DNA from: Oceanospirillales bacterium | Lineage (GTDB): Bacteria > Pseudomonadota > Gammaproteobacteria > Pseudomonadales > Balneatricaceae | Reading direction: 5' to 3' | NCBI GenBank assembly: GCA_018223185.1 | Contig: JAAEYW010000003.1 | Coordinates: 90,074 to 154,073, forward strand | Length of the DNA: 64,000 nucleotides | The notes under the pieces: model-generated | What the model saw: the letters and a program-made list of their open reading frames with translations, nothing else | The model's database searches: none | What the model was told of the DNA's origin: nothing | Shown: positions 6,938 through 61,860 of the stretch, one piece after another | Layout: the number at the start of each line of letters is the position of its first letter | Numbering within the stretch: position 1 is the first letter of the stretch | Made by a program: the position numbers and the translations under genes

Positions 6938-7031
6938 CAGAGAGACTGTCTGAGGCGAAAAAACAGCGATCAGCCTTTAATTTATTTTATTCAGCCTTAT
7001 ATAGGGAGAAGATCGCAACTCCCCAGGCGAA

Positions 7032-8207
<1,176 letters not shown>

Positions 8208-8248
8208 CTTTAATTTATTGATTTTATTAAGTACTAGGAGAAGCCGTA

Positions 8249-8584: not shown

Positions 8585-8601
8585 TCATAAATCCATAATT
8601 A

Positions 8602-8627
8602 AACGCCACTATCGTGGCGTTGTTTTT
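8602..8627 (+). terminator. Hairpin with T tract after yajC
   Basis: AACGCCAC (8602-8609), loop TATC, GTGGCGTT (8614-8621), then GTTTTT. It sits within the yajC-secD gap, so it may attenuate rather than fully end transcription before secD. Confidence 0.65.
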
Positions 8628-8768
8628 ATGTGATTAAAGCAGCGACGGTTCAGGCCGTTGCCTGCTTGTTAAATCGTTTAAATCTAATCATTGGAGCCGG
8701 GTCAGAGACGAGCGTTTTTTGATTAAACCGTTTGAGCTTATAACCGGGCTAGTTAGGGACAGAGCGCC

Positions 8769-10619: not shown

Positions 10620-10633
10620 CGGAGTAGAGTAAG

Positions 10634-11557
10634 ATGACGACTGAAAAAATTTATAACTTCATGGGGCTGCGAAAAGTTGCGGCCGCATTTTCGATTACGT
10701 TGCTGCTGATCTCTGTCGCTTCACTGGCGATTAACGGCCTCAAGTTTGGTCTGGATTTCACCGGTGGTTCGCTGATCGAAGTGGGTTATCAGCAAGAGCC
10801 GGATCTGAATAGTATCCGCGATAAGCTGGAGAATGCCGGTTATGAGGATGCTGTTGTACAAACCTTTGGCTCACCGGTGGATATACTTATCCGCATGGGG
10901 GTTGCTCATGATCCCAAGCTGGGAGATATGGTGCTGCAAACCCTGCAGAGCGGTGAGCCTCAGGCGCTGACTTTGCGCCGCAACGAGTTTGTCGGCGCTC
11001 AGGTGGGTGAAGAGCTTCGCGAGCAGGGCGGTTTAGGCATGTTGCTGGCGCTGTTTATGGTGATGGTATATGTAGCCTTCCGCTTTCAGCTGAAGTTCTC
11101 CGTTGGTGCGGTAACCGCGCTGGCGCATGATGTGCTGATCGTGCTTGGCTTCTTCTCTATACTGCAGCTGGACTTTGATCTGACCGTGCTGGCCGCTGTT
11201 CTGGCGGTGATCGGTTATTCACTCAACGATACCATTGTGGTCTCCGACCGTATTCGGGAGAACTTCCGGAAACTGCGTAAAAGTGAACCGATTGACGTAA
11301 TGAACGTCTCGCTGAGTCAGACTCTGGGCCGTACGATGGTAACCTCTCTGACCACTCTGCTGGTGCTGGTAGCACTGGCGGTGTTTGGTGGTGAGATGAT
11401 CCATGGCTTCGCAGTGGCGCTTTTGGTGGGTGTTTTTATCGGTACATATTCTTCTATCTATGTGGCCGCGAACATACTGATCATGCTGGGGATCTGTAAA
11501 GAGGATCTCCTTCCGCCAGAGAAGCAGGAAGGTGAAGAGGTCGACGAAATGCCCTGA
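10634..11557 (+). CDS. secF: Protein translocase subunit SecF
   Basis: Partner of SecD in the inner membrane. The 307-aa protein has an N-terminal membrane segment, the GLDFTGGSLIEV motif, and C-terminal membrane segments with GYSLNDTIVVSDRIREN. Start ATG 10634 follows a GGAG site in the short gap after secD. A terminator follows the stop codon and ends the queA-secF transcription unit. Confidence 0.97.
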   Translation: MTTEKIYNFMGLRKVAAAFSITLLLISVASLAINGLKFGLDFTGGSLIEVGYQQEPDLNSIRDKLENAGYEDAVVQTFGSPVDILIRMGVAHDPKLGDMVLQTLQSGEPQALTLRRNEFVGAQVGEELREQGGLGMLLALFMVMVYVAFRFQLKFSVGAVTALAHDVLIVLGFFSILQLDFDLTVLAAVLAVIGYSLNDTIVVSDRIRENFRKLRKSEPIDVMNVSLSQTLGRTMVTSLTTLLVLVALAVFGGEMIHGFAVALLVGVFIGTYSSIYVAANILIMLGICKEDLLPPEKQEGEEVDEMP

Positions 11558-14926: not shown

Positions 14927-16282
14927 ATGTTCAATAAAAAATTAATTCGTGTTCTGACGAATACGGGTTTTTGTTCGGTATTGTTTTGTTCAGCTCAGGC
15001 GCAGGCCGATGACTTGATGGATGTATGGAAAGTCGCTGAAGAGAACGATACTAAATACCTTTCTGCATACCACAAATTCCGCTCGGGCCAAGAAATTATC
15101 AATTTGAGTCGTGCGGATTTGTTGCCGACCATATCGCTCCAGTATGAGCACAAAGAGACCAGTAAGACCATCAATGAGTCTGATAACGCTGTGTTTTACG
15201 GCAACTCTGCTGATTATCCCACTGATAGCTACGGTCTGACACTTACTCAATCAATTTTTGATTACTCCCGCTGGCAGCGTTATGACCAGTCAAAGATCAG
15301 CGCTAACCGCGCAGAGGTAGAATATAAGCTATCCAAACAGCAGTTGTTGTTGAGGCTGTCAGAAAGCTATTTTTTGGTTCTTGAGCGGAGTGATCAGCTT
15401 CAGGCGATTGAAGCCGAAAAGACCGCGATGTTTAAACATTATGAAGTGTCCGAAAAGAAGCATAAAACGGGTCTTGTCAGAACGGTAGATCTACAGGATG
15501 CATCAGCGCGTTATCTGAATGCGCTGAGTAAAGAGATCGAGTTACAAAGCCGCTTAATGGATAGTCGCTATGCACTGCGGGAATCTTTGGGTTCGATGCC
15601 GGGTGAGCTCTCCCGATTGCGCAGTGATATTCAACTTGAAATGCCTGTGCCATCTGATCCTGAAGAGTGGGTAAGGCTTGCGGCAAAAAATAATCCGGAA
15701 TTACATGCGCTGAATCTCACTTTAAACGAGGCGGATAAAGAGATTAAGGCCTTACGAGGCGGACACTACCCAACCCTTGATCTGGTCTTAACACACGGTA
15801 ACGTTGTGGTTGAGGGTTCTCCATTCGGCGGTAGTAGTGATATCGATACAACCGAGATGGCAATTCAGTTTAATTTACCTCTTTATTCAGGAGGAAAAGC
15901 CTCTGCCAAAATCCGTCAGGCCATGGAAAAACGTAATAGCGTGCTTGAAGATCGCAATGATAAAAGGCGTGCTGTTGAACGTTCCGCTCATGATGCTTAT
16001 CACCGTATAAATGAAGCTATCGTGCAAGTTAGCGCTCTTGAGAAATCCCTTCAGGCGCAGGAAAGTCGTTTGAAATCTAAGTCGGCTGGTTACCGTAGTG
16101 GTCAAAATAGCCTGGTAGAGGTTCTGGATGTTGAACAGGATCTTTCCGATGCAAGGCAGGCTTTGATCAAGGCCCGATACGATTATGTGCTTAACGTTTT
16201 GCGGCTCAAGTTTGCGGTTGGCGCGCTACAGGAAGAAGATCTGTCAGCAATAAACAACTGGCTTACAAACGATCAGTCATAG
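14927..16282 (+). CDS. TolC-family outer-membrane channel protein
   Basis: Predicted outer-membrane exit duct for a multi-component exporter. The 451-aa protein has a signal peptide (basic start, hydrophobic core, cleavage after AQA near residue 27) followed by the two repeated OEP halves of TolC proteins, with long coiled helices. The second half contains the typical FNLPLYSGGKASAKIRQA segment and a SGQNSLVEVLDVEQDLSDARQAL-like helix. It is the first gene of the giant-protein locus and lies 123 bp before the giant gene. The locus also has adaptors and an ATPase, so this is probably a dedicated channel rather than the general TolC. Confidence 0.9.
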   Translation: MFNKKLIRVLTNTGFCSVLFCSAQAQADDLMDVWKVAEENDTKYLSAYHKFRSGQEIINLSRADLLPTISLQYEHKETSKTINESDNAVFYGNSADYPTDSYGLTLTQSIFDYSRWQRYDQSKISANRAEVEYKLSKQQLLLRLSESYFLVLERSDQLQAIEAEKTAMFKHYEVSEKKHKTGLVRTVDLQDASARYLNALSKEIELQSRLMDSRYALRESLGSMPGELSRLRSDIQLEMPVPSDPEEWVRLAAKNNPELHALNLTLNEADKEIKALRGGHYPTLDLVLTHGNVVVEGSPFGGSSDIDTTEMAIQFNLPLYSGGKASAKIRQAMEKRNSVLEDRNDKRRAVERSAHDAYHRINEAIVQVSALEKSLQAQESRLKSKSAGYRSGQNSLVEVLDVEQDLSDARQALIKARYDYVLNVLRLKFAVGALQEEDLSAINNWLTNDQS

Positions 16283-16293
16283 TCTGCACGTAG

Positions 16294-16387
16294 TCTCTGC
16301 GTATAAGTTTGTTTCGTTTATCGCGCAGAGAAGCTTGCTTTCCTTCCGTATCAACTGAAAAAAGCGTATTGAGTAGTTGCTTTTTTT
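16294..16387 (+). promoter_or_regulatory. Hairpins between tolC and the giant gene
   Basis: Three pairings are visible: TCTCTGCG (16294-16301) with CGCAGAGA (16324-16331); AAAAAAGC (16358-16365) with GCTTTTTTT (16379-16387); and CAACT (16352-16356) with AGTTG (16375-16379). The last two overlap at G16379 and so compete. The second ends in a 7-T run and could act as a weak terminator or attenuator that lowers expression of the 38-kb gene relative to tolC. All three stems are short. Confidence 0.35.
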
Positions 16388-16405
16388 AAATGAAATATTC
16401 ATTGG

Positions 16406-16576
16406 ATGAAAATTATGTCGTATATATTTAATCGTCTTTTCAGAATGCGTTATGACAAATTTCGTAACTTAAGACAATTCATATGGACTAGTCAGGGTAT
16501 CACTGCCCGACGACGTAATACTTATCTGATGGAACAGATGGAAAATCGTTATCTGTTATCTGCAGATGCGGCCCCT
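16406..16576 (+). other. LEPR-XLL-type N-terminal leader of the giant protein
   Basis: The first 57 residues are rich in Arg, Phe and Tyr (for example FNRLFRMRYDKFRNLR, ITARRR) and contain no long hydrophobic core. They end in MENRYLLSADA, a variant of the LEPR-x-LL-SADP motif found at the start of giant bacterial surface proteins. The position and conservation of the motif suggest an export or processing signal. That use is inferred. Confidence 0.7.
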
Positions 16577-19500
16577 CTTGCGTTAAGTGCCGAGCTGCTT
16601 AACGAAAATGTCATGGTAGAGCAACTAATTGATGCAGGCTTAGCGGAAGCGAGTAACTCTGAGGAGTTACAGCTGATTCGTCAGCATGATTATGATCAGT
16701 ATGACGGGGATAGCAGTGCAGAGGCTACAGCTGAGATTGAGAATCTTCAGGTTGCGGAGCTGCCTTCTTCCTCAGCAGTAGAAGACGAACTTGAAGGAGT
16801 TCAGCCTAAAGATAGTGTTGATGATAAGGCCGTTGCGGATGCTGAGACAGCAAAATCTGTCGCTTCGATTCAGCACATTCAGCAATTGTCAGGTCATCAG
16901 TTTGTTGTTATTGATCGTTCCGTTGACGATTATCAAGCGTTGTTAAGTACCTTTATGGGGGATGCAGCCGATAGGCTTGAATGGCATGCTGAAACCACCA
17001 GTGATGGCAGTGTATTAGTGGCCGATTGGTATCCGGCAGAGGAAATTACGGAAGAGTCTTTAGCCTCAGAAAACGAATTAACTGATGCCTTAGTGGATGC
17101 GTCATTGGAGCGTAAGCAGGCCGAACGAGTGACGGTCGTTTTGCTGGATGCCGACATGGATGGTGTTGAGCAGCTTGCTGATGTTCTTTCCGCCTATGAA
17201 GATGTTTCCGCGCTGCATGTATTGTCACACGGTGCTTCAGGCTTACTTCGCCTGGGCACCGCTACTCTGGGAAGTGCTTCCTTAGAACGTTATCGTCAAC
17301 AGCTGGAAGCCTGGGGCAAAGCGCTGAAGTCAGATGGTGATATTCTTATCTATGGCTGTAACGTTGCGCAAGGTGATGTTGGTATCGCGTTTGTTGACCG
17401 GCTGGCGGGTGCAACGCAGGCGGATATTGCCGCGTCAGACGACTTGACCGGTAATCGCTTTATCGGTGGAGACTGGATACTGGAAACAGAGTCAGGCTAT
17501 GTCACGCATACCCTTGATATGATGTCTTCTGAGCAGTTGTTTTTTGCATCGAATGATCCTCTGTATGCCGGGCTTCTGGCCGCAGATAAATCGGTTAGTT
17601 TAGGTGAGTTAAATGGCTCGGCGACACCGGTAACCCTTGCTGCGGGTACAGATACAATCAACTTTACCGGTGTCAGCAGTGATATTCGCATTATCGTGAC
17701 GGGGAAAACCGCCACAACTCCATTTAAAATTACAGCACAGGTAATAAATGAAACCACGGGCGCCCTGGTGCCTAATACGTTACGAACTTTTCAGTTTGCC
17801 GACGGTGATGATTCAACTATTAAGACAATTAAAGTGGGTAAGCTTGGTTATAAAACTGAGCTTGAGTTACAGACCAAAATAGATGTTTTAGATACATCAA
17901 CACTAGCGGCCGCCCACATTGCTATCAGCAAAAAAGGCACGGCTTTATCGAGTGATGATGCATTTAAGTGGGTGAAAGACTATGCGGTAATGGGGATCGA
18001 CCCAGAAGCCGCTGATGCCGCCGCTCAGCTGAATACTAAAAACGCGGTTGCGGTGGTTACCACCGCAACGGGAGAAATTGGCAAGTTATCGGTTGGTAAG
18101 GCCCTGGATATAGGGAATACCAGGCTTATTATCGATGATACTGGCGCACCCATAGATATTAATAAAGCCAACACCAATTACTCCGGGAAAATTGATCTGC
18201 TGTACAATTCTGGCGGCTCAGGTACTGTGCTGACGAATTACGTCAACCTGTCAGCGGGTAATATCATCAAAGGTGTGGGCACTTTAACAGGCTTTACCAC
18301 TGCATCATTTGCCTCGTTCACGGCTGATAAAGGCGATCAGAAATTTGATATTACCGGTTTAACCAATGTCACTGTGGATGCCGGTGCGGGTGAAGACTAT
18401 CTGGTGGGGGGCACAGGTAGCCAAACGTTAGTGGGTGGTTCCGGAACAGACACTTATCTGTTTAAAGACAGTTGGGGTGCTGATCAGATTATAGAAAGCG
18501 CCGATACCAAAGACGGTTTAACGGTGATTAAGGGCGGCGACGCCGATGCCCTGGATTTCTCTGCGCTGACTCAGGCGATTACGGTTGAATTTCACCCTTC
18601 TGTTAAGTCGACCAAACCGCTGTCAACAACTACTGTGCCGGGTATTCCGGTGGTTTCTGAAGTGTTGGAAAGTGATAGAACATCGACTGATAAATATGGT
18701 GTTCAGGTTTTCCAGGGCCAGAATGTAACCACCAGTGCACACTCAGTAAAAAATGCCATCAATGTTGAAAAAGTGATCGGTGGCCTGGGTGATAATACCT
18801 ATAAATTCAATAATGACTGGGGTCAGTTTTATCAGGGCGCGACGCCGGCGCTGACAGAAACCGTTAACTTTTTTATTGACGATACTCAGTCAACCAGCAA
18901 GAAAGGGACGCTTGATTTCCGTGAGGTCACTCACGATCTGATTTTCGAACTGGATAGTATCAGTACGACCTCTACCGGGGTTCCGGCGGTCACGACAATA
19001 ACGTCAAAAGTGAAAGTGACGGCGGTCGTAGAGAAACAGATCAATATTGGTACGACTGCGGTACCTATATTAAAAACAGTCACTTACACCTATGTTGTTA
19101 ACGCGGATAATATTGCCAACATCATCGGTGGTCAGGGTAAGAACACTTATATCATCAAAGATCAGGATGCCTTGCCCGGTAAAATTCTGACCGCGAAGAC
19201 AACCGGTACGGTGGCTGAGGGACTGGTAACAGGTATCGTCTATGTCGCGGGTGCCGATATCGCTAAAACCGATGGCGTTAATATTCTGGATTACTCGCAA
19301 TATAAGTCTACAAACACTAACGATGTGATTGTGGATCTGGGTAAATCAACGACGGGTGTAGTCAATAAAGCGGTAACCGGTATTCTTAATACCGCCGATG
19401 GTGTGCTCCCCGCTACGGCCACCAACGAAGTACAGAAACTGACTGTTCCGAAAATTAAAGTGGGTACGCCTGCTTCGCCTCTTTCCAGTGCTCAGGAGCT

Positions 19501-22500
19501 GAGTAACATCAAGAGCTTCCGGTTGTCTCTGGGAGGCGTAGAAACCATAGAAATTAGTAATTCGGGTACTGCGGCATCGATTGCAGCAGAAATGGCTAAA
19601 GCTCTTAATGGATTATTGTTAAAAGCGACGCCGGTTGTTTCTACAAATACAGCCCCGGCCCCGCCCGCCGCCACGCCTGCTGCTATGGTTAATGTGACCG
19701 GTGCAGGTACTGCGACGGGTACCAGTCCATACGATTTCACTATCACATTCCAATCGTTAGCGGCTGGAATGAATATTCCAGAGATTAAGCTGATAGCGGA
19801 AGCTCGTTCAGAGAAAAAAACCGCAGGAGGAAGCAATCAGACGACCATCGTTTTAAGCGCTGAGACTGAAACGAATCCTGATCCTCTTACCGTTATTAAA
19901 AAGTACACTTCCAGCGGGCCTACGGTTGAAGATCGTTACACACTGACGACCACCATTAAGACCATCATCATTGATGCGGTAGAATTTACCGGCGCCAGTA
20001 CCGGATTAAAAGCGGGGGCTATCGATCGCATAGATGGCCTGAGAGGCACCAGTGATTCGGGTGCGGGTACGATTAAAAGTATGACCGTTTTAGGCGACTT
20101 TGGCTTGTTGGTCAATGGTACGGGTAGTGGTGACGACCTTATATTTTCTGATAATTATACCCAAGCCGTTAGTGTTAAAACCGGGCGGGTCTGGGATGGT
20201 GGTGCCGGCCAGGACATTATCACCGGCACGCTACAGGGCGATATCTTGTATGGAGGCCTGGGTAATGATGCCATCGGTGGTGGGGAGGGCGATGATAACC
20301 TCAGTGGTGGCGCAGGCAATGACCGAATCAGTGGCGGCTTAGGTGACGATGTTATCAGCGGTGGTGCTGGCAATGACTACCTGAGTGGTGGTCTGGGCGA
20401 TGACAGTATCGTGGGTGGTACGGGTCATGATGTTCTCTATGGTGGAATAGGTGACGATACCCTTATTGGCGGCAAAGGCTACGATCATTATGTGTTCATC
20501 AATGACTGGGGACAGGACGAAGTTATTGAAAGTCAGAAAGGGAAAGATGACACAACCACTGATGAAGGGCTGAAAACCCGTGGAGATGTGCTTGATTTCT
20601 CCAATGTTACCCAGGAGATGACTTACCTGTTCAACAGCAATAACTTATTGGCAGGTACCGGTACTTTTATTAAAGATAAAACCAGCTGGACTAAAACCCT
20701 CTCCGGATTTGGTGATGTCTCTGGCCATTTTGCGCTGACAGCCAATACTGTTCGTGTTAACAGTGAAGGTAACGCCAATGATGTACAGCGAATATTTCTG
20801 GGTGGTGCTGTATCGGGTAATTTCACGGTAAAACTGAATAACTTCCCCAAACCGGATGGTACGGTTGAGACAACAGCGCCGATCTCAATCACAGTAGCCA
20901 GCACCACGGCAGTGACAGCGAGCAATATAAAAACGGCACTGGAAACTAAGCTGAGAGTCCTTCTGACACCCGTTGGTGGTGTAGCGCCAGTTGGTGACCT
21001 GGTAACCGTGAAGTCTGCAGGGTCAGGAACCGGGGCGTTTGATGTTGAGTTCAAAAAACCGATCTACACCAATATACCTTTAATGACGATTGTCAGCACC
21101 ACTGGGCTATCTTATGCGATTCCGACGGTCGGCACGTTGGTGCCGGGCGTTAATACGGTTGATGCTAATACGGGGTTAATTACTCAGCATACCAATGGTT
21201 CCGTTAAGATCGATCTGGGGCTGGCAGAGTCCGGTAGTTTTACAATGGGTTTCAAATACACTGAAACCATCGGTGGGGTAGCGACACCTAATAAGGCTGT
21301 ATCCATTACGGTACCTATCGCATCAGGTTCGACTCCTAATGATATAGCGGCACAGATTCAACAAAAATTAAACCAGCATAGCCCACAAATATTTGCCAAT
21401 GTGGTGGTTTATGGTGCAGGCAATAAATTTGAAATTACTGTTTTAAATCCCGAAATAAGCGATCTCAACACGGTTTCACTCACTAACTATTCAACGTTAA
21501 AGGGTAAGCCCGATATCTGGACAACCGTTGAGGGCTCTTCGGTTCGTGAGATTAAGCAACTGACACTCAATAATGTCACCGAAGGTAGCTTTGTTTTAAC
21601 TATTGGTAAGTATTCCACCGGCCCTATTACCATTGATACCACGGCCACTACACTTGTGGATCAGGAAAAAAATACTAGCCTGTCTATTCAGACTGCATTA
21701 AATAATCTGAAGCAAAATTTTGTCCAGAAATACACGGTAGAGGTCCGCGCCGATAGTTTTACCGCTGACCTGAAAGAGTGGCAAATTACCTTTACAGCGC
21801 CGGGTGAAAATGATGTGACGGATATGTCTGTCGACGTGACGGGCTTAAAAGGGACTAATAATTTACAGGGACGGGTTACCACGCTGGCTGATGGTAGTCG
21901 GGCCGGCAACATACATGCCTTTGAGACTATTCTGGCGCCTAATGCCGACGCGACCTTTATTTTTGGCTCTGCCTCGGCAGCCGATATGCTGGCGGCGATT
22001 GCCGTTCCAGAAGCGTTACGCAAAACAAATACCGTGACCATCGATACCAGTACGCTGACGGCAAATGGACATGTTCTGGACATCGATTTCAGTCAGGTTT
22101 CGGATGAACTGAATTTCAACTTTGAGCAGAAGGGGGCGGTTAAAGAGGTACAGCCGCTTATCATAGATACCACTACGGCGGGTGAGTTTGCTCTCGATTA
22201 TAAAATTGAAGAGATTCAGCGACTGGCCTTCACCGGCTCTGAATTGCCTACTGGAACCTTTAAGCTAAGTTTTAAAGATCCTCATACGGGTACCGTTAAA
22301 ACTACAGCGACTCCGATTGAAATTATTACCAATGCCGCGACCGGTAAAGTAGACGTTAAAGCGACCGCTTTAAAAATTCAAACAGAATTGAATAAACTGA
22401 AATTCAGCTCTGCGACAGGTTCTCAGGTGAGCCTTAATGTGAAAGTGACCGGTGTGACTGTTGATGGATCACCCATTACCGCTGAAACAACTAATGAAGG

Positions 22501-54217: not shown

Positions 54218-54226
54218 GGAATAGAG

Positions 54227-54535
54227 ATGTCTGGCGATACTGTAGAAAAAAAGAAAGCAAGTGGACCGACAATTCGTTGGGACGATAGCAAGATGCGAAG
54301 TACTTACTCTAATGTATGCAATGTTTCCAGTACACGAGAGGAAGTGACTTTGTTGTTTGGAACTAATCAGGCGTGGCGTGCAGGACAAAAAGAAGTCGGT
54401 ATTGAATTAACTGATCGTATGATCGTCAGCCCTTTTGCAGCTAAGCGTTTATCTCTGCTGTTAAGCAGTGTGGTTGCAGAATATGAAAAGCGTTTTGGTA
54501 CACTCGATGATGCAGCAAGCATAAAGAAAGATTGA
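54227..54535 (+). CDS. DUF3467 family protein
   Basis: Small soluble protein of 102 aa with no signal peptide or membrane segment. It matches the DUF3467 pattern: IRWDDSKMRSTYSNVCNVSSTREEV near the N terminus, LFGTNQAW, then ELTDRMIVSPFAAKRLSLLL and a C-terminal helix with YEKRFG. The molecular role of DUF3467 is not established. It starts 9 bp after the giant gene's stop codon with GAGGA overlapping that stop, so the two are probably translated together. The position between cargo and machinery suggests a chaperone or export-coupling role, which is inference. Confidence 0.85.
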   Translation: MSGDTVEKKKASGPTIRWDDSKMRSTYSNVCNVSSTREEVTLLFGTNQAWRAGQKEVGIELTDRMIVSPFAAKRLSLLLSSVVAEYEKRFGTLDDAASIKKD

Positions 54536-54567
54536 TTAGTCGACAGTTGGCTGACTTATAAACGCTT

Positions 54568-54597
54568 CGGTATGTTTTGACATGCCGGGGCATTTTT
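54568..54597 (+). terminator. Hairpin with T tract after the DUF3467 gene
   Basis: CGGTATG (54568-54574), loop TTTTGA, CATGCCG (54581-54587) with one G-U, then GGGCATTTTTATATTTAT. It may partly separate the cargo genes from the downstream machinery genes. The gap is about 90 bp. Confidence 0.55.
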
Positions 54598-54628
54598 ATA
54601 TTTATACAGATAAAAAAAGAATTTATTT

Positions 54629-56452
54629 ATGGGTGTGATAACTGCTTCGTTGCCGGATTCAATTCAGCAGCTGAATGGGTTGCTGGATACCCATCATGAG
54701 AATTGGCACTTTACCTGGCTGGAGTGGTTGTGCAGTCAGCTACCCCAGGTTCGTGTAGGATTAGTCGTTGCCGATGAGTCACAAAGTGGGCAGTTTCACT
54801 CGGTTGCTGTCTGGCCGGAAGTGGACGTTCAGGACAAATTATTGCTGGATGCAGCAGAAGAGACTCTGAAGAAAAAGCAGCCACTTATCATGCCTTTAAA
54901 TGATGGTAAGCACCATATTGGCAGTTATCCTGTCTTTGTCGATGGAACCCTGCGCGCCGTTGTTACATTGATGCTCAGTGCAGAAGATGAAGCTGAACTA
55001 CACAAAGCGTTGGCGGTTATTGAATATTGTGCAGGATGGCTTGAGTTACGCTTTTCCCGAAACCTCTTAGGTGTTGTGGCCCGGGATAATCAGCGTCAGC
55101 ATATTGTCATTGATAGTATTGCTTATGTCCTCGGAGAGCGTGATTTTGAGCATGCCGCGCTGCGTTTTGTGAATCTGATGGGGCAATATCTGGATGCCGA
55201 GCGCGTCGTGCTGGGGTTTGTGAAAAATGCTGAGTTAGAGGTTCATTCTGAATCAGATAGTAGCGGTCATAGTAAAAAGCATGAGTTAGTCAAACTAACT
55301 ACACAGGCTATGCAGGAAGCAGTAGATCAGCAAGAATCCATTTTATGGCCAGAGTTGGATGACCATAACCGCGTGACCCATGCGCACAATTTGTTAGCAA
55401 GTGAAAAGGGCCAGCGAGCACTGATGACTATCCCGCTGGTGGATAAGGAATCATGCTATGGAGCGGTTCTTTTTGACCGTCCCTCAGATCAGCCGTTCAC
55501 CAAAGACGAACAACTGACAGCAGAAGCGTTGACTAATTTTGTCGGTGTTGTGCTTGAAGAAAAGCGACAATCTTGCTTGCCGTTGTATGCTTACATTTTT
55601 CGTAGTTTTAAAAATCAACTGAGTCTTCTGTTTGGTCCTGGACATCTGGGCCGAAAGATTGTGATTTTTAGCCTGCTTTTATTATCGCTCTTTTTTAGTC
55701 TGGTCTCTGGTAGTTACAACATAAGCGCGGATGCCGTTATTGAGGGGGCTGAGATACGCTCTATCGTTGTACCTTATGATGGTTATTTACAGAAAGCCAC
55801 GTCGAGGGCTGGTGATACCCTGAAAGAGGGGGCATTGTTAGCAGAACTGGATACGCGAGAATTGCGCTTGCAGTTGATGAGCTGGGTAAATCAGGAAGCA
55901 ACATCCCGGCGTAAGTATGAAGATGCATTGGCCCGAAGTGAGCGTACGCAGGTGCAGATCAATAATGCCGAGAGTCAGCGGGCGCGGGCAGAAATCGAAC
56001 TGCTTGAGTACCAGATCTCTCAGGCGGCCATGAAGGCCCCGTTTGATGCGCTTATTGTGTCGGGGGATCTGAGTCAGCGGATAGGCACGCTGGTTCGTCA
56101 GGGGGATGTGTTATTCGAGTTATCTCCTCGTAGTGATTTCAGGTTAGCAACGTATGTCGATGAGTTTCGTATCAACGATATCCGCCAGGGGCAAACGGGC
56201 CAGCTGGTTTTAGCTGCACTGCCCGATCAGAAATTTTCATTCAGAATCACCCGTATAAACCCGATGGCGGAAGTCAAGGAAGGTTCAACTGTTTATCGTG
56301 TTGAAGCCGTTTTTGAAAACCGGGATGAAATGTTACGGGTTGGTCTTGAAGGTGTGGCGCAGATATATGTTGATGAGCGCCTGTTGATTAGTATCTGGAC
56401 GCGTGGCCTGGTCGATTGGATGAAACTTCAATTGTGGCGTTTCTGGGGATAG
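54629..56452 (+). CDS. GAF-domain / HlyD-type membrane-fusion fusion protein
   Basis: 607 aa. The N-terminal half (about 30-320) is cytoplasmic and looks like two GAF-type domains; the second is clearer, with ALRFVNLMGQYLDAERVVLGF and ALMTIPLVDKESCYGAVLF. One membrane segment follows (344-362). The periplasmic half is HlyD-like: a split lipoyl/barrel-sandwich domain (SIVVPYDGYLQKATSRAGD and MKAPFDALIVSGDLSQRIG), a coiled hairpin between them (about 405-470), and beta-barrel/membrane-proximal parts (VDEFRINDIRQGQTGQLV). Predicted inner-membrane adaptor whose GAF part may sense a cytoplasmic ligand or dock the ATPase. No strong ribosome-binding site precedes ATG 54629. Such GAF-HlyD fusions are unusual compared with classic type I adaptors. 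Confidence 0.85.
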   Translation: MGVITASLPDSIQQLNGLLDTHHENWHFTWLEWLCSQLPQVRVGLVVADESQSGQFHSVAVWPEVDVQDKLLLDAAEETLKKKQPLIMPLNDGKHHIGSYPVFVDGTLRAVVTLMLSAEDEAELHKALAVIEYCAGWLELRFSRNLLGVVARDNQRQHIVIDSIAYVLGERDFEHAALRFVNLMGQYLDAERVVLGFVKNAELEVHSESDSSGHSKKHELVKLTTQAMQEAVDQQESILWPELDDHNRVTHAHNLLASEKGQRALMTIPLVDKESCYGAVLFDRPSDQPFTKDEQLTAEALTNFVGVVLEEKRQSCLPLYAYIFRSFKNQLSLLFGPGHLGRKIVIFSLLLLSLFFSLVSGSYNISADAVIEGAEIRSIVVPYDGYLQKATSRAGDTLKEGALLAELDTRELRLQLMSWVNQEATSRRKYEDALARSERTQVQINNAESQRARAEIELLEYQISQAAMKAPFDALIVSGDLSQRIGTLVRQGDVLFELSPRSDFRLATYVDEFRINDIRQGQTGQLVLAALPDQKFSFRITRINPMAEVKEGSTVYRVEAVFENRDEMLRVGLEGVAQIYVDERLLISIWTRGLVDWMKLQLWRFWG

Positions 56453-56486
56453 TTCATTTGTACCAGCTGACTGATATGGAGTTATC

Positions 56487-58631
56487 ATGAGTGCTAACCT
56501 GTTTTCCAGCGATTGGTATCAGATTGCCGAATTGAAACCCCGGTTACGCCGCCATGTTACGGTCAATGCTCATCGCTATCGAGGCCGGCGCTGGTATGTC
56601 CTCGAGGATCATGTAACCGGTCAGGTGCGTCGTCTTTCCCCTCAGTCTTATCTGATTGTGGGGTTGATGAATGGCGAGCGGACAATTGACCGGCTATGGG
56701 AGTTATCGTCTCAGCGGCTGGGCGAAGAGATGCCGACGCATGAGGAGATGCTGCAACTACTGGCCAGCCTGTATCAAGCCAACCTGGTCGGCATGGATAC
56801 CAGCGGTGATATCAGTGAACTGTTTGAGCGTGGTAAAGAGGCAGAAAGAACACGCTGGATGGCCAAACTGAAGTCGCCACTATCCATTAAAATCCCTCTG
56901 CTCGATCCTGAAAGGTTTTTAGTCGCTACGCAAAAATATGTGAAGCCATTGTTCTCCACGATTGCACTATTGATCTGGTGTGCAATGGTTATTGGCATGC
57001 TATTCATGGTTGGCCAGCATTGGGATGAACTAACATCAAACGTTATTGACCGGGTGTTAGCGGCGGATAACCTGCTGCTGTTGTGGTTTGTATATCCAAT
57101 AATCAAATTGTTGCATGAGCTGGGACACGCTTATTGCGTTAAACGGGGCGGCGGTGAAGTTCACGAACTAGGCATTATGTTACTGGTACTGTTACCAATG
57201 CCCTATGTTGATGCTTCGTCAACCAATGCATTTGCGAGTAAGAAACAGCGCATTTTAGTCGGCTCTGCTGGTATTATCATCGAGCTATTCATTGCTGCGG
57301 TGGCGATGTTTGTATGGGTGAATTCTGAGCCTGGTCTGATCAAGTCTATTGCTTATAACGTTATTTTTATTGCGGGATTATCCACCATTATGGTGAACGG
57401 TAATCCTCTGCTCAGGTTCGATGGTTATTACATACTGGCAGACTGTATAGAAATACCTAACCTTGGCCAGCGCTCCAATCAATACTGGGGATGGCTGACT
57501 AAGCGTTTCATGTTTGGCGTGAGTGGACTGACGTCACCGGCTTATGATCGGCGTGAGGCGCTCTGGTTATTTTTCTACGGCTTTGCATCCTATATCTATC
57601 GCATGTTTCTGATGGTCACCATCGTACTATTCGTTGCACAGAAATATTTCTTTGTTGGTATTGTGCTGGCGATCTGGGCGCTGGTTGGCACATTGATTGT
57701 GCCAAACTTCAAGCTGCTGAAAAAAGCCTGGCAAGACTCTGATATCCGGACGGGACGGCGAAGCCCTTCGGTCATGATTCCTGTGACGGCTTGTATCGTA
57801 TTGCTGCTTTTATGTGTGATGCCACTACCGTTGACCACGACGGTTGAAGGCGTGGTGCAAATGGGCGAACAGCGTCGTGTTCTGGCGGAAGAAAATTGTT
57901 TTGTTGAAAAACTGCATAAACCATCGGGTGCGATTGTTCATAAAGGCGACTTGCTGATTAGCTGCACAAATCCCCAATTGCGGAAAGAACAAGTCGTCTT
58001 ACAGCAGCAATTTATAGAGACAAGTGCTGAACGACAAGGTGTCTGGAACGACCCTGTTCAGTTGAAAATCTACGATGATCAATTGTCGCGATTAATCTCT
58101 GAATTGAAAGAGAATGAAACAAGACTTACATCATTACATCTATATGCTCAGGCTGACGGTATCTGGTCTCTGAGAAATCCAGCAGACCTGCCTGGGATGT
58201 TTATCAGACGTGGTGATCTGATTGGGCATGTCATAACAGATCAGAACGTTTCGATTCTTGGCATGGTGCCAGAAACTGATATTGAACTGGTGCGTGAAAA
58301 ATCTGAGACCGTCGTCGCGCTGCAAACATCTGATCTGAATACCGAATTAACACCTCAGAGCTGGTTTGTCTTTCCGGCAGCGACAAAAGAAGCCGTCAGT
58401 GGAATACTGACTGAAACGGCAGGCGGCACTATTATTACGGATCCTTCCTCTACTGCCGAGACACCTCAGGCATTGAGGCGATACTTCATCGTTGCACTTG
58501 AATTTGAACACTTTCCCACTGTTTATGTGGAAGAGCGTATTCATCTGAAGTTCGAGCATCCTCCTGAGGCAGTCATTTACAGGCTTTATCGCATCGTTCG
58601 TCGTACTTTCCTGGAGTACTTCAGTGTCTGA
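56487..58631 (+). CDS. PqqD-like / M50 metallopeptidase / HlyD fusion membrane protein
   Basis: 714 aa. Residues about 20-110 resemble a PqqD-like winged helix (YVLEDHVTGQVRRLS, MNGERTIDRLWEL, LLASLYQANLVG). A polytopic membrane part (about 150-450) carries both M50 site-2-protease motifs: H210-E-L-G-H214 inside a membrane helix, and NGNPLLRFDG with D312. Both are intact. After the last membrane segment comes a lipoyl/HlyD-like periplasmic domain (about 455-700) with VEKLHKPSGAIVHKGDLL and IWSLRNPADLPGMFIRRGD. It is predicted to be the inner-membrane core of the exporter and possibly a protease for the cargo leader. GGAG precedes the ATG, and the gene overlaps the SecA-like gene by 8 bp. In classic T1SS this place is held by an ABC transporter. 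Confidence 0.88.
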   Translation: MSANLFSSDWYQIAELKPRLRRHVTVNAHRYRGRRWYVLEDHVTGQVRRLSPQSYLIVGLMNGERTIDRLWELSSQRLGEEMPTHEEMLQLLASLYQANLVGMDTSGDISELFERGKEAERTRWMAKLKSPLSIKIPLLDPERFLVATQKYVKPLFSTIALLIWCAMVIGMLFMVGQHWDELTSNVIDRVLAADNLLLLWFVYPIIKLLHELGHAYCVKRGGGEVHELGIMLLVLLPMPYVDASSTNAFASKKQRILVGSAGIIIELFIAAVAMFVWVNSEPGLIKSIAYNVIFIAGLSTIMVNGNPLLRFDGYYILADCIEIPNLGQRSNQYWGWLTKRFMFGVSGLTSPAYDRREALWLFFYGFASYIYRMFLMVTIVLFVAQKYFFVGIVLAIWALVGTLIVPNFKLLKKAWQDSDIRTGRRSPSVMIPVTACIVLLLLCVMPLPLTTTVEGVVQMGEQRRVLAEENCFVEKLHKPSGAIVHKGDLLISCTNPQLRKEQVVLQQQFIETSAERQGVWNDPVQLKIYDDQLSRLISELKENETRLTSLHLYAQADGIWSLRNPADLPGMFIRRGDLIGHVITDQNVSILGMVPETDIELVREKSETVVALQTSDLNTELTPQSWFVFPAATKEAVSGILTETAGGTIITDPSSTAETPQALRRYFIVALEFEHFPTVYVEERIHLKFEHPPEAVIYRLYRIVRRTFLEYFSV

Positions 58632-60618
58632 ATATGCGCGTAAACAACCTGTTATTGCAGGTTTGCGAAACGAGTATAAATGGCAGGAGAGTAATCGTCT
58701 CGACACTTTTTTGAAGAAATCGAAAGAGCTTGCTAAGAAACTGAGTAACAAGTTGTTACGGCGCAATGAGCGAATCGTTAACGCAATATTTAAACGTTCC
58801 GGGGAACTTGAGCGTTATACCGCTGAAGAGCTGGAGCAGGCGCTGCTTAACGTTCGCCAGACTCTGCGGCTGGAAGGAATCAGTACGGCGACAATCATTG
58901 AAGCGTTTTCTGTGATAAGAGAGGTGAGTGGACGCGTGCTTGGTATGCGCCATCATCATACGCAAATCAGGGCCTCCCTGGCGATGTTGCGTGGCGGAAT
59001 TGCTGAGATGGCAACAGGAGAGGGGAAAACCCTGGCGGCTACGCTGGCCGCTGCGACTGCCGCGATAGCCGGTATTCCGGTCCATGTCGTCACCATCAAT
59101 GATTACCTTGCGGAGCGTGACTGCGAAGAGATGTTACCGCTGTACGAAGCATTGGGGTTGTCGGTAGGCGTTATTGTTCATGAAAAGGAGTTGCAGGAAC
59201 GGCGGCAGATTTATGCCTGTGATATCTGCTATTGCAGCAATAAAGAGCTTACCTTTGATTTTTTAAAGGACAGTCTTGTTCTGGCTCATAGAAAAACAAC
59301 GCGAATGCAACAGGCGTCCCTACTGACAGGGGATTCCTCCTGGTCGGATAATTTATTATTACGCGGTTTACATTTTGCGATTGTTGATGAGGCTGATAGC
59401 GTATTCATTGATGAAGCCAGAACTCCGTTGATTATTTCAGGGCAGGAAAAGTTTGGTCAGCGGGAGGAACTATTGTTGAAGACCGCTATGGATATTGCGG
59501 TGAAGTATGAAAAGGAGGTCCATTTTAAGCAGGATGAAAATTCACAGGTACATTTTACGCCTGCAGGGCATACGTTATTAGTTGAGTGTTGCGAACCGCT
59601 TGATGGTCTCTGGAATAGTAGCTTTTATCGTGAGCCTTTGGTGAAGCAGGCGCTGGCTGCCTTGCATGTCTACCATCTTGATAGGGACTACATTATTGAT
59701 GAAGAGGGCGCTGTGCAGATTGTCGATCTGTATACCGGTCGGGTAATGCCCGGACGTAGTTGGGGCCAGGGCCTTCAGCAAATGATTGAGATGAAAGAAA
59801 AGTGTGAGCTGACCAAACCCAGGGAAACGAATGCTGAGATCAGTTATCAGAATTTTTTCAGAAAATATCATCATTTGTGCGGTATGACCGGCACCGTCCG
59901 GGAGGTGGCAGGCGAGTTATTAGATGTTTATCGACTACGTAGTGAAACGGTACCCTTGTTGAAAAAAAGTCTGCGTCGGAAAGCATTTTGTGAAGTGTAT
60001 CTGACCGAACAGAAAAAGTGGAAGCGGGTTGCAGAGCTTACTCATGAACTTGTAGCGCAGGGGCAGGCAATACTTATTGGAACAAATTCAGTTGCCTCGT
60101 CGGAAGCCATCAGCAATATCCTTGCTAGTGAGTCTATTGAGCATAAGATATTGAATGCGCGTCAGGATAAAGAGGAAGCTGAGATCGTATCCGTCGCGGG
60201 TCATTCTGGAGCAGTCATGGTTGCTACCAGCATGGCTGGTCGTGGAACAGATATAAAGTTGACTGAGGAAACACGAGCATCCGGTGGATTACATGTCATC
60301 ATCACAGAGCTGCAGGATGCGGCTCGAATTGACAGACAGTTAGCAGGGCGGAGTGCACGCCAGGGAGACCCGGGGTCTGTCAGTGAGATTTTATCATTTG
60401 AGGATCAACTAGTAAAAAGGATGGCCGGACCTCTGCTCAGAAGGTTCATAAAGGTGATTAGCACTACGGGGATAAAGTTACCTAATCGGTTGGGTTATCG
60501 CATACAGTTGAGTTGCCAGAACAAACTTTCACGAAGTCATTACAAACAGCGTATGCAACTCATAAAAGTAGATACTCAGCGTCAGCGGACATTGGCATTT
60601 ACCGGGGATAAAAAATGA
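58624..60618 (+). CDS. Short SecA-like preprotein translocase ATPase
   Basis: 664 aa against about 900 for housekeeping SecA. Motor motifs are intact: Walker A ATGEGKT (K135), VNDYL-type TINDYLAERD, DEAD-like D255-E-A-D followed by SVFIDEARTPLIISG, the preprotein-binding region (about 275-390), MTGT, GRGTDI (R540, D543) and QLAGRSARQGD (R579). The sequence stops soon after NBD2, so most of the helical scaffold, the wing domain and the C-terminal zinc-binding tail are absent. The start is GTG 58624, inside the end of the M50 gene; no in-frame ATG lies nearby, so translational coupling is likely. It overlaps the next gene by ATGA. It is the only ATPase in the locus and probably its motor. The housekeeping secA must lie elsewhere. 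Confidence 0.92.
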   Translation: MSEYARKQPVIAGLRNEYKWQESNRLDTFLKKSKELAKKLSNKLLRRNERIVNAIFKRSGELERYTAEELEQALLNVRQTLRLEGISTATIIEAFSVIREVSGRVLGMRHHHTQIRASLAMLRGGIAEMATGEGKTLAATLAAATAAIAGIPVHVVTINDYLAERDCEEMLPLYEALGLSVGVIVHEKELQERRQIYACDICYCSNKELTFDFLKDSLVLAHRKTTRMQQASLLTGDSSWSDNLLLRGLHFAIVDEADSVFIDEARTPLIISGQEKFGQREELLLKTAMDIAVKYEKEVHFKQDENSQVHFTPAGHTLLVECCEPLDGLWNSSFYREPLVKQALAALHVYHLDRDYIIDEEGAVQIVDLYTGRVMPGRSWGQGLQQMIEMKEKCELTKPRETNAEISYQNFFRKYHHLCGMTGTVREVAGELLDVYRLRSETVPLLKKSLRRKAFCEVYLTEQKKWKRVAELTHELVAQGQAILIGTNSVASSEAISNILASESIEHKILNARQDKEEAEIVSVAGHSGAVMVATSMAGRGTDIKLTEETRASGGLHVIITELQDAARIDRQLAGRSARQGDPGSVSEILSFEDQLVKRMAGPLLRRFIKVISTTGIKLPNRLGYRIQLSCQNKLSRSHYKQRMQLIKVDTQRQRTLAFTGDKK

Positions 60619-61361
60619 ACAAAAAACAAGTCATGTTTATGCTTGCTGCAGGCCTTTTTTTCACTCAGGCCGGAAGCCTTCATGCGGATGAACTGATCTT
60701 ATCAACGCTGGGTTGTATGTTAGAACCGAGCGAGAAGGTGCAAATAAGTTCACCGGTTAGCGGCGTACTTGATAAGGTGCAGGTTAAACGCGGAGATAGT
60801 ATTAAAAAAGGACAGTCTTTATTCCAGCTAAAAGCCGGTGTCGAGAGGGAAGCTGTGCAATTAGCAAGCGTCAGAGCTGAGTTTGCTAAAAGAAAGCAGC
60901 AGCGCAACATGGATCTCTACGACGAAGATATTTTAACGGCTAATGAACGCGATGAAATTGAAACAGAAGTTCTCATCGCTAAGTCCGAGTTACGTTTAAA
61001 GGAGCAGGAACTCGAACTGCGTAAGGTTTTCAGCCCCATTAATGGCGTGGTTGTTAACCGCTTAAACAATGAGGGAGAGTATGTAAATACAGATCCTATT
61101 TTGTCTCTTGCTACGCTGGATCCTTTACATGTGGATCTGTTATTACCTGCCAGTTATTTTGGAAAAATTGCGCTTAAACAAGAGTTATTGATTAAACCCG
61201 AGTCAGAGGTCATTGCTGCCCAGCGTGCCAACGTTATGATTGTGGATCCTTTGATTGACTCAGGCAGCGGTACTTTTCGTGTGCAATTAGTGATGCGTAA
61301 TCCAGGTAATAAAATTCCTGCGGGTATCCGCTGTACAGCGCAAACAGTGAACAAGCCTTAG
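60615..61361 (+). CDS. Periplasmic adaptor (membrane-fusion) protein
   Basis: 248-aa HlyD/RND-type adaptor. A signal peptide is visible (MNKKQ, hydrophobic core, cleavage after LHA near residue 24). Lipoyl halves ISSPVSGVLDKVQVKRGD and VFSPINGVVVNRLNNEGE flank a helical hairpin (about 75-135), followed by a beta-barrel part ending with PAGIRCTAQ. It is short and has no membrane anchor. It overlaps the SecA-like gene by 4 bp. Probably it bridges the inner-membrane HlyD-type subunits and the TolC channel. Confidence 0.88.
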   Translation: MNKKQVMFMLAAGLFFTQAGSLHADELILSTLGCMLEPSEKVQISSPVSGVLDKVQVKRGDSIKKGQSLFQLKAGVEREAVQLASVRAEFAKRKQQRNMDLYDEDILTANERDEIETEVLIAKSELRLKEQELELRKVFSPINGVVVNRLNNEGEYVNTDPILSLATLDPLHVDLLLPASYFGKIALKQELLIKPESEVIAAQRANVMIVDPLIDSGSGTFRVQLVMRNPGNKIPAGIRCTAQTVNKP

Positions 61362-61365
61362 GATA

Positions 61366-61860
61366 ATGAAGAAAAACAACAGTAATGTACTTTTAGGTAT
61401 TATCTTAGTTCTGGTTTTACTAAATTTAGGGCTAACTGGATTAGTGCTGGTGAAGCAAAACACTGCCCCAGCGTTAGCGATAAATGACCGGATAGACAGT
61501 TTTGCCCCTTCCGTTGCTAAAGCGTGGGGGGAAAGAGTTACAACGCTGTATAACCGACAAGATCCTCAGGAACTATATGACTTGTTTAATGAGCAAGCTA
61601 AACAGAAGATCAGTTATCAACAACTACAAACCCAGTTAAAAAACCTTTTTCAGTTGTTTGGTGAAATACAGAAAACCACCTTTGTTAGCGCCGATAAAAT
61701 AGGTGAAAAGGGCGATGAGTCTTACTACCGTTTGCTTTTTAATATCAATGTAAATGAAGCCAGCAAACGATCGCCGAGGTTAACAATAGTGGTTATTAAG
61801 AGAGGGAAAGAAATGAGCGTTTATGGTGTCCGTATTAACGCTGATTACGACCTTGAATGA
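61366..61860 (+). CDS. Small membrane-anchored protein of unknown function
   Basis: 164 aa with one N-terminal membrane segment (about 8-30) and a periplasmic domain. The segment AWGERVTTLYNRQDPQELYDLF, the following helices and the final strands (LLFNINV, LTIVVIKR, MSVYGVRIN) resemble cystatin/NTF2-like small domains such as DUF3887/DUF4019; this is a fold guess only. It starts 4 bp after the adaptor gene and is the last gene of the locus. It could be an accessory or assembly factor. Confidence 0.7.
   Translation: MKKNNSNVLLGIILVLVLLNLGLTGLVLVKQNTAPALAINDRIDSFAPSVAKAWGERVTTLYNRQDPQELYDLFNEQAKQKISYQQLQTQLKNLFQLFGEIQKTTFVSADKIGEKGDESYYRLLFNINVNEASKRSPRLTIVVIKRGKEMSVYGVRINADYDLE

What the first reader, a model, noticed from the sequence alone, without database searches (positions are those of the whole stretch)
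14927..61860. Candidate SecA-powered, type-I-like export system dedicated to one giant protein
Seen: TolC channel, giant protein, DUF3467, GAF-HlyD fusion, PqqD-M50-HlyD fusion, short SecA-like ATPase, soluble adaptor and a small anchored protein on one strand, with overlaps of 8 and 4 bp among the last genes. Known: classic T1SS uses an ABC ATPase plus HlyD plus TolC, and SecA normally works with SecYEG. Inference: here a SecA paralogue supplies energy, the M50/HlyD membrane protein replaces the ABC permease, and the machinery exports the 12,603-aa protein from cytoplasm to outside.
Basis: partly seen in the sequence, partly recalled or inferred. Interest (0 to 1): 0.93.

Follow-up and report, generated by a model that had tools for sequence, protein, structure and literature searches.

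The report
SecA-linked export machine for giant proteins
A marine bacterium carries, next to a gene for a 12,603-residue protein, a gene set resembling a type I secretion system in which a cut-down SecA motor and a membrane protease stand where the usual ABC transporter would be; the gene set was noticed in print in 2015 with no known job, and genome comparisons now suggest that its job is exporting such giant proteins.

Summary
One strand holds TolC, a 12,603-aa RTX/LEPR-XLL protein, DUF3467, GAF-HlyD, PqqD-M50-HlyD, a 664-aa SecA-like ATPase, HlyD and a small anchored protein, with the stated 8- and 4-bp overlaps. A second such cluster with its own giant lies upstream on the same contig. The core is conserved: in 80 named loci chosen by M50 similarity, GAF-HlyD precedes M50 in 74 of 75 and a SecA-like gene follows in 75 of 77 where contigs allow. 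The 42 SecA-likes scanned keep DEAD, P-loop and PPXD but lack the wing/scaffold domain. LEPR-XLL and the machine co-occur (strong M50 in 16 of 23 LEPR genomes, 5 of 251 others). Two single-contig genomes have machine and giants but no type I ABC transporter over curated cut-offs.

The machine, and the idea that SecA replaces the ABC ATPase and M50 the pore, were published in 2015 (PMC4452313), role 'completely unknown'. New here: the giant cargo, C-terminal motifs, single SecY. Against a simple SecA story: SecA-less sister loci and three SecA-likes without Walker A. No transport step has been tested experimentally.

The parts
14927..16282 (+). TolC-family outer-membrane channel, 451 aa
   Evidence: TIGR01844 279.8 bits over cut-off 225.15; PF02321 two stretches
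16406..54217 (+). giant protein, 12,603 aa, 3 Cys, candidate cargo
   Evidence: single open frame; composition; domains
16526..16591 (+). LEPR-XLL motif of the giant (aa 41-62), candidate leader
   Evidence: NF012209 20.6 bits, cut-off 17; found again in the genome search
17102..17533 (+). DUF4347 domain of the giant (aa 233-376)
   Evidence: PF14252 E 1.6e-46
28244..28402 (+). matrixin-like (M10) stretch of the giant
   Evidence: PF00413 E 1.1e-05, 25.8 bits, cut-off 24
52337..52444 (+). best RTX stretch in the last quarter of the giant
   Evidence: PF00353, 4 stretches in that quarter
53915..54214 (+). last 100 aa of the giant: hydrophobic stretch ending in GW, basic stretch, then W; candidate C-terminal export signal
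   Evidence: similar C-termini in giants of related loci
54227..54535 (+). DUF3467 protein, 102 aa, function unknown
   Evidence: PF11950 E 8.3e-22; within 700 bp upstream of GAF-HlyD in 26 of 70 loci; no PDB match
54629..56452 (+). GAF-HlyD: GAF part, one membrane helix (aa 340-365), HlyD part
   Evidence: PF01590, PF13437, PF16576; hydrophobicity
56487..58631 (+). PqqD-M50-HlyD: PqqD-like N-domain, 7 hydrophobic segments, HExxH (aa 210-214), NPLLRFD (aa 306-312), HlyD domain
58624..60618 (+). SecA-like ATPase, 664 aa, without wing/scaffold and SEC-C domains
60615..61361 (+). HlyD-type adaptor with signal-peptide-like N-terminus, 248 aa
   Evidence: TIGR01730 111.8 bits over cut-off 94.9; hydrophobic N-terminus
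61366..61860 (+). small protein with N-terminal hydrophobic helix, 164 aa; not a conserved part
   Evidence: weak DUF3887 match below cut-off; one homologue in 80 named loci

Best explanation
The genes encode a type-I-like exporter whose cargo is the giant RTX protein beside it. Proposed working: the cargo's N-terminal LEPR-XLL leader is held by the PqqD-like domain of the M50 protein (inferred by analogy with PqqD/RRE domains, recalled). The SecA-like protein, a minimal motor of two nucleotide-binding halves and a polypeptide clamp without wing/scaffold and two-helix finger, grips the unfolded chain and drives it with ATP (architecture shown, action inferred). The chain crosses the inner membrane through or beside the M50 membrane domain (inferred), passes a ring of HlyD-type adaptors (GAF-HlyD, M50-HlyD, secreted HlyD; arrangement inferred) into TolC, and folds outside on calcium through its RTX repeats (inferred from the family). 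The M50 protease, whose metal-site residues are conserved, may trim or release the leader (inferred). The Trp-containing C-terminus is a candidate second signal. The GAF part may switch the machine (inferred; also proposed in PMC4452313). Shown: gene content, conservation, domain loss, cargo association. Inferred: every transport step. Sub-claims: module exports the giant about 0.75; SecA-like is the energy source about 0.6; M50 domain forms the pore about 0.4.
For: Module found in Pseudomonadota, Desulfobacterota, Nitrospira and an Omnitrophota bin. Where contig ends allow, GAF-HlyD upstream of M50 in 74 of 75, SecA-like within 1.1 kb downstream in 75 of 77 (three full-length ones lack Walker A), HlyD in 60 of 69 loci; loci were picked by M50 only. 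Both loci without an adjacent SecA-like gene (L089, L130) and G081 have a short SecA with intact Walker A elsewhere in the genome. LEPR-XLL in 23 of 274 gammaproteobacterial genomes, 16 of them among the 21 with a strong M50 match, 13 family labels; Fisher 1.4e-16, not corrected for phylogeny, M50 cut set after seeing the gap. DUF4347 in 15 of 21 against 13 of 253. An RTX, LEPR or DUF4347 protein in view in 48 of 71 named loci with at least 5 kb on one side. Walker A and DEAD-type residues invariant in aligned rows (the three divergent SecA-likes were not among the rows); M50 HExxH and D312 invariant in 21 and 38 rows. 0 of 42 have SecA_SW, 2 of 2 housekeeping controls do. Short and housekeeping SecAs split with 100/100 support, 26 against 16 rows. 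Single-contig genomes G053 and G106 carry machine and LEPR giants but no type I ABC over cut-off.
Against: No experiment. M50-HlyD clusters without SecA sit beside LEPR/DUF4347 giants (L068, L071 and this genome's C1 giant). L095, L096 and L142 hold SecA-likes without Walker A; the genome of L142 shows only the housekeeping SecA besides. G206 and G190 have GAF-HlyD, M50 and LEPR giants but no short SecA was found (drafts of 160 and 90 contigs). In 23 of 71 named loci no such giant is in view. Eight of 21 genomes, this one included, also have a recognised type I ABC exporter. An M50 fold is not a known protein pore. SecYEG involvement is not excluded. G106 and locus 2 have a two-partner-secretion pair between giant and machine, so another cargo is conceivable.
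Confidence: 0.5

Rival explanations
1. Two-step route: the SecA-like protein works with the ordinary SecYEG channel to bring the giant into the periplasm, and the HlyD/M50/TolC proteins carry it over the outer membrane, with M50 acting as a site-2 signal protease.
For: It is a true SecA relative keeping the PPXD clamp; PDB profile hits are SecA or SecA2 chains or SecA chimeras; a SecY was found in 20 of 21 genomes.
Against: None of 42 has the wing/scaffold domain; the chain ends 74-87 residues after GRxxRQG against 309-339 in 16 housekeeping SecAs. No second SecY. No strongly hydrophobic signal-peptide core at the giants' N-termini, though this test is weak.
Confidence: 0.2
2. The giant leaves by the genome's unlinked ABC type I system, and this module processes, anchors or times the release of the exported giant.
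For: This genome has a LssB-type ABC exporter over cut-off at C4 with HlyD and TolC-like genes; the giant has RTX repeats like type I cargo; GAF and M50 parts suit regulated cleavage.
Against: The C4 exporter has its own RTX protein beside it. 13 of 21 machine genomes show no type I ABC over curated cut-offs, among them single-contig G053, where all candidates were scored. An ATPase and three adaptors for anchoring alone would be unexplained.
Confidence: 0.13
3. The module matures and exports something else, such as a peptide or the neighbouring two-partner protein, and giants are only frequent neighbours.
For: The M50 protein resembles a daptide (RiPP) protease family, 145.7 bits though cut-off 300; TpsB and TpsA lie in the cluster in locus 2 and G106; 23 of 71 loci show no giant in view.
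Against: Co-occurrence with LEPR-XLL across 13 family labels; two clusters and a third SecA-less one in this genome, each with its own giant; partly shared C-terminal motifs of linked giants.
Confidence: 0.12

Closest known systems
Secondary SecA_DEAD / type-I-related conserved locus (Kamneva, Poudel and Ward 2015, PMC4452313)
   Same: Same gene set: SecA_DEAD protein without full SecA_SW, Peptidase_M50-HlyD, GAF-HlyD, HlyD, sometimes OEP, no ABC transporter; same proposal that SecA supplies ATP hydrolysis and M50 a pore.
   Different: That paper names no cargo; its main text has no 'giant', 'LEPR', 'DUF3467' or 'DUF4347' and no 'RTX', and calls the role completely unknown. Here a cargo class, candidate signals, SecA-less sisters and Walker-A-less versions are described.
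Type I secretion system (HlyB/HlyD/TolC, LssB class)
   Same: TolC, HlyD-type adaptors, RTX cargo.
   Different: No ABC exporter domain on the contig; three different adaptors, two fused to GAF or M50; SecA-like ATPase.
Accessory Sec system (SecA2/SecY2) for large serine-rich adhesins (cargo recalled)
   Same: A SecA paralogue devoted to large surface proteins.
   Different: No second SecY; SecA-like lacks the wing/scaffold; TolC/HlyD parts present.
LEPR-XLL giant proteins (NF012209)
   Same: The giant carries the motif over cut-off; an about 8000-aa Vibrio protein with LEPR-XLL and C-terminal RTX is in print (PMC10868602, passage).
   Different: No export route was given in the passage seen.
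PqqD-M50 RiPP proteases (daptide, LiaK)
   Same: Matches the NF041824 model over aa 18-404, which includes the HExxH protease region.
   Different: Fused HlyD domain; score below cut-off; no peptide precursor was looked for.

Membership tests
Type I secretion system | ABC transporter energises export, in or near the cluster | tested here: not met
   PF00664 hits lie on C4, C11, C13, C26, C29, C30, C37, none on the window's contig C43
Type I secretion system | HlyD-type adaptor and TolC | tested here: met
Type I secretion system | RTX cargo | tested here: met
   PF00353 in all four quarters of the giant
Type I secretion system | uncleaved C-terminal secretion signal | tested here: inconclusive
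   recurring C-terminal Trp patterns, not universal; function untested
Canonical SecA | DEAD, P-loop and PPXD domains | tested here: met
   42 of 42 chosen rows; the divergent L095, L096, L142 show SecA_DEAD only
Canonical SecA | wing/scaffold (SecA_SW) with two-helix finger | tested here: not met
   0 of 42; 2 of 2 housekeeping controls have it; model ends in one 40-aa helix
Canonical Sec export | cargo with Sec signal peptide | tested here: inconclusive
   hydrophobic maximum 0.97-1.82 in 15 LEPR proteins against 2.14-2.27 in four controls, but a fifth control (TolC) is 1.50
Accessory Sec SecA2/SecY2 | second SecY | tested here: not met
   one SecY in 20 of 21 genomes, none found in G081
Secondary SecA_DEAD locus (PMC4452313) | SecA_DEAD without SecA_SW, with M50-HlyD, GAF-HlyD and HlyD, no ABC | tested here: met
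   definition read
LEPR-XLL giant proteins | NF012209 match over cut-off near the N-terminus | tested here: met
   20.6 bits, cut-off 17
Daptide HExxH protease | NF041824 over curated cut-off | tested here: not met
   145.7 bits, cut-off 300
Secretion function | giant is exported in a module-dependent way | not testable with these tools
   needs mutants

The most novel reading that the evidence does not exclude
A separate protein export route of diderm bacteria: a finger-less SecA motor, without SecY, drives giant RTX proteins in one step through an intramembrane-protease/HlyD assembly into TolC, with an N-terminal LEPR-XLL leader read by a PqqD domain and cut by the M50 site, in the way C39-ABC exporters read and cut their leaders, plus a C-terminal Trp signal; SecA-less sisters borrow another motor.
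Probability: 0.35. Interest if true: 0.92.

Novelty: new member of a known kind. Interest (0 to 1): 0.62.

Why it matters
RTX proteins are described as sharing one export mode, the type I system (abstract of PMC3034196, seen in the listing), and the inner-membrane transporters of tripartite exporters as ABC, RND or MFS proteins (abstract of PMC8277102, seen in listings). A SecA-driven tripartite exporter would be a further class. The locus was reported in 2015 with role 'completely unknown'; linking it to LEPR-XLL/RTX giants gives a cargo, candidate signals and organisms in which to test it. It would also show what a SecA can do without its wing/scaffold and finger.

Tried and rejected
Rejected: accessory SecA2/SecY2 system (no second SecY). 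Rejected: adjacent ABC exporter (no PF00664 on the contig). In the flanks held (up to about 10 kb) of the 80 named loci, a query with this genome's own type I ABC (E 1e-20 or better) hit proteins of about 600 aa in L088 and L090 (both Sulfuritalea) and short frames in L103 and L131; in the G-genome loci it hit a short frame in L053 and, directly after weak-type M50s, proteins of about 620 aa in L073 and L074. Rejected as a core part: the small anchored protein.

Led nowhere: DUF3467 has no PDB relative and no informative paper. The 50 Foldseek rows shown for the M50 model are periplasmic adaptors (MacA, MexA, AcrA, CusB, EmrA and the like), so neither the M50 nor the PqqD part was confirmed by fold; its pTM is 0.55, so the domain arrangement is not trusted. 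VIA-align was not available. The first SecA tree had at least one housekeeping row in a wrong frame and four very divergent rows; the second has corrected rows, leaves out those four and several other short rows, gains genomes, and lost one row (sh_G274) that the script's motif filter missed. In it the short SecA of G275 is a long branch next to the housekeeping clade, so the split rests on an unrooted tree. The first giant-neighbour count (44 of 63 and 7 of 18) missed DUF4347 proteins and short edge fragments; the wider rule, made after seeing that, gave 48 of 71 and 10 of 18. The C-terminal motif is not universal: of the 47 upstream proteins several (for example L057, L123, L155) show no such pattern, and some of the 47 may not be cargo (L040 lies downstream of a TpsA-like frame). 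In three half-splits the best hit lay in the last 110 residues for 9 of 11, 11 of 13 and 11 of 13 proteins with a hit, of 22 tested each; near-duplicates (giant1, L077, L078) inflate this and L040, L065, L109 were left out beforehand. W-x-x-[DE]-aromatic was found near the end of 12 of 1400 frames; 7 of the 12 are proteins of at least 1300 aa at the module, 5 are unrelated; the pattern was shaped on L043, L121, L138, L147.
Full report
What is there. Domain searches confirm TolC, DUF3467, GAF-HlyD, M50-HlyD, SecA-like and HlyD; the small anchored protein has only weak matches. The giant is one open frame of 12,603 aa with a LEPR-XLL motif at aa 41-62, DUF4347 at aa 233-376, RTX repeats in each quarter and a matrixin-like stretch; it has 3 cysteines. 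Upstream genes scanned include queuosine genes, secD/secF and an RNB/S1 (RNase R-like) gene, downstream is serB; none of these is an ABC exporter. The nearest named relatives by the M50 protein are Amphritea (90 and 88% identity), Oceanospirillaceae.

A second and a third cluster. On the same contig, C43:20088-74084, lies a paralogous cluster: an AMIN-OEP (TolC-type) protein, a LEPR-XLL/DUF4347 giant split by an assembly gap (1680 and 9025 aa), a ShlB/FhaC-type and a TPS-domain gene, then GAF-HlyD, PqqD-M50-HlyD (37% identical to the window's), SecA-like (44%) and HlyD. A third LEPR giant on contig C1 is followed by an HlyD-type protein and a weaker M50-HlyD, without a SecA-like gene.

Conservation. 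A profile of the two M50 proteins was searched in 274 gammaproteobacterial genomes: 35 matched at 1e-30 or better; 21 form a strong group (1e-124 or better; the cut was chosen after seeing the gap to 1e-93). In 20 fetched regions of the strong group (L040-L059) GAF-HlyD is found in 19, a SecA-like gene in 16 and HlyD in 15; of the four without SecA one is cut by the contig end and three (L044, L046, L053) lack it. Of these three, G081 has a short SecA on another contig and G206 and G190 showed none. Among these 80, where the contig allows the check, GAF-HlyD precedes M50 in 74 of 75, a SecA-like gene follows within 1.1 kb in 75 of 77, HlyD in 60 of 69, and DUF3467 sits before GAF-HlyD in 26 of 70. 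Titles name Gamma-, Beta- and Alphaproteobacteria, Desulfobacterota relatives, Nitrospira and an Omnitrophota bin. Both loci without an adjacent SecA-like gene (L089, L130) have one with Walker A elsewhere in the genome. The 80 were the closest to the window's M50, so these rates hold for this subtype only; in the weaker M50 loci (L060-L074, L032) a SecA-like gene was seen only in L069.

Cargo. LEPR-XLL (NF012209) was found in 23 of 274 genomes; 16 of these are in the strong M50 group of 21 (Fisher 1.4e-16; no phylogenetic correction, 13 family labels). LEPR genomes outside the strong group are G076, G119, G120, G177, G213, G224 and G237; G119, G177 and G224 have a weaker M50, and the matches in G120 and G237 are marginal. 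Strong-M50 genomes without a LEPR match are G008, G094, G258, G264 and G265; G094, G258 and G264 have DUF4347. DUF4347 was found in 28 of 274 genomes, 15 of the 21. Coordinates put LEPR giants in the same cluster as the machine in G053, G081, G106, G107, G190, G206 and G240, besides this genome; in several others they lie on different contigs of fragmented drafts. Within the flank held, an RTX, LEPR or DUF4347 protein is seen in 48 of 71 named loci with at least 5 kb on one side, and in 10 of 18 of the G-genome set; the rest show none.

The SecA-like motor. The 42 chosen relatives all have SecA_DEAD, P-loop and PPXD and none SecA_SW; both housekeeping controls have SecA_SW and SEC-C. The AlphaFold2 model (mean pLDDT 87.7) ends in a single helix 621-660. 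The chain stops 74-87 residues after GRxxRQG (25 short rows with the motif), against 309-339 in 16 housekeeping SecAs. In an unrooted tree 26 short and 16 housekeeping SecAs split with 100/100 support. Walker A and DEAD-type residues are invariant in the aligned rows. Three full-length loci left out of those rows break this: L095, L096 and L142 have SecA-likes without Walker A, of which Pfam recognises SecA_DEAD only. The genomes of L095 and L096 hold another short SecA with Walker A (that of L096 with an unusual C-terminus); that of L142 shows only the housekeeping one.

The M50-HlyD protein. HExxH and the NPLLRxD aspartate are invariant in 21 and 38 rows, which suggests an active protease. 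Pfam detects M50 in 30 of 38 and PqqD in 11 of 38. Seven hydrophobic segments would put PqqD in the cytoplasm and HlyD in the periplasm. The model (pLDDT 84, pTM 0.55) shows an N-terminal mixed domain, a helical membrane part and an adaptor-like part; the Foldseek rows shown are periplasmic adaptors.

Signals. The first 100 residues of 15 LEPR proteins lack a strongly hydrophobic core, but the measure is weak because one of five Sec controls overlaps. Trp makes up 2.3% of the last 100 residues against 0.75% elsewhere in 47 upstream proteins. Two patterns recur: a small-residue hydrophobic stretch ending in GW, then a basic stretch, then W followed by D, E or Q (the window's giant among them); and I-D/N-W followed by W-x-x-D-F-V near the end. 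Neither is universal.

Other exporters. The genome has a LssB-type ABC exporter at C4 with an RTX protein, an HlyD-like and a TolC-like gene beside it. Over curated cut-offs a type I ABC protein was found in 8 of 21 machine genomes: 3 HlyB-type, 4 LssB-type, 1 PrtD-type; G163 has one below cut-off that spans the model (626 bits). Single-contig G053 and G106 have none over cut-off although both carry LEPR giants (13,848 and 8,630 aa frames); both have ABC exporters scoring below it. In G053 all candidates were scored, in G106 33 to 41 of 40 to 46. SecY is single in 20 of 21 and was not found in G081.

Prior work. The full-text search found Kamneva, Poudel and Ward 2015 (PMC4452313), of which I saw the abstract, sections 16-18, the first part of section 19, parts 2 and 3 of 7 of the whole text, and passages. 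They describe the same machine, note the missing wing-scaffold domain and the missing ABC transporter, propose SecA as ATPase and M50 as pore, report that partners may lie elsewhere in the genome, and call the role completely unknown. Their main text holds no 'giant', 'LEPR', 'DUF3467' or 'DUF4347' and no 'RTX'; supplements were not read. Other searches listed no paper that I recognised as joining this machine to giant proteins; the library lacks most subscription journals and preprints.

Judgement. The strongest new point is the cargo. The weakest is energy: SecA-less sister loci and Walker-A-less SecA-likes mean that the SecA-like protein may be one of several motors, or partly a receptor or chaperone.

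Noticed in passing
G000:C43:20088-74084 (outside the window; L008, L009, L004): Second machine with its own LEPR-XLL/DUF4347 giant and a ShlB-type/TPS-domain pair between giant and machine; G106 (L040) has the same pair before its machine, so a two-partner protein may share the system.
   Followed up: partly
L184 (G000:C1:225576-245575); L068, L071: Sister type: LEPR/DUF4347 giants beside an HlyD-type protein in the GAF-HlyD position and M50-HlyD, no SecA-like gene seen; energy source unknown. L062 has the same gene order with a TolC-type gene, but its LEPR frame is on another contig.
   Followed up: partly
L095:12176-14101, L096:12200-14107, L142:11910-14087: SecA-like genes at the usual place that have lost the Walker A motif; two of the three genomes hold a further short SecA with Walker A.
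   Followed up: partly
L073, L074: Weak-type M50 genes directly followed by an ABC protein of about 620 aa, which may be an ABC-powered relative of this machine.
   Followed up: no
L182:4752-11707 (G000:C4): LssB-type ABC exporter with an RTX protein, HlyD-like and TolC-like genes in the same genome.
   Followed up: yes
L186:3-1946 (G213:C57): A 7373-aa LEPR-XLL frame in a genome with no M50-HlyD match at 1e-30 and no short SecA found, so the motif is not confined to this system.
   Followed up: no
window 5903-11557: queA, tgt, secD and secF lie a few kb upstream of the cluster; probably coincidence.
   Followed up: no
L190:4813 to L191:9805 (G053:C1:429812 to 474804): Two LEPR giants (frames of 13,848 and 3,186 aa) in one cluster, with an HlyD-like gene and a 550-aa gene between, before GAF-HlyD, M50 and SecA-like, in a 1.9-Mb single-contig genome.
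   Followed up: partly
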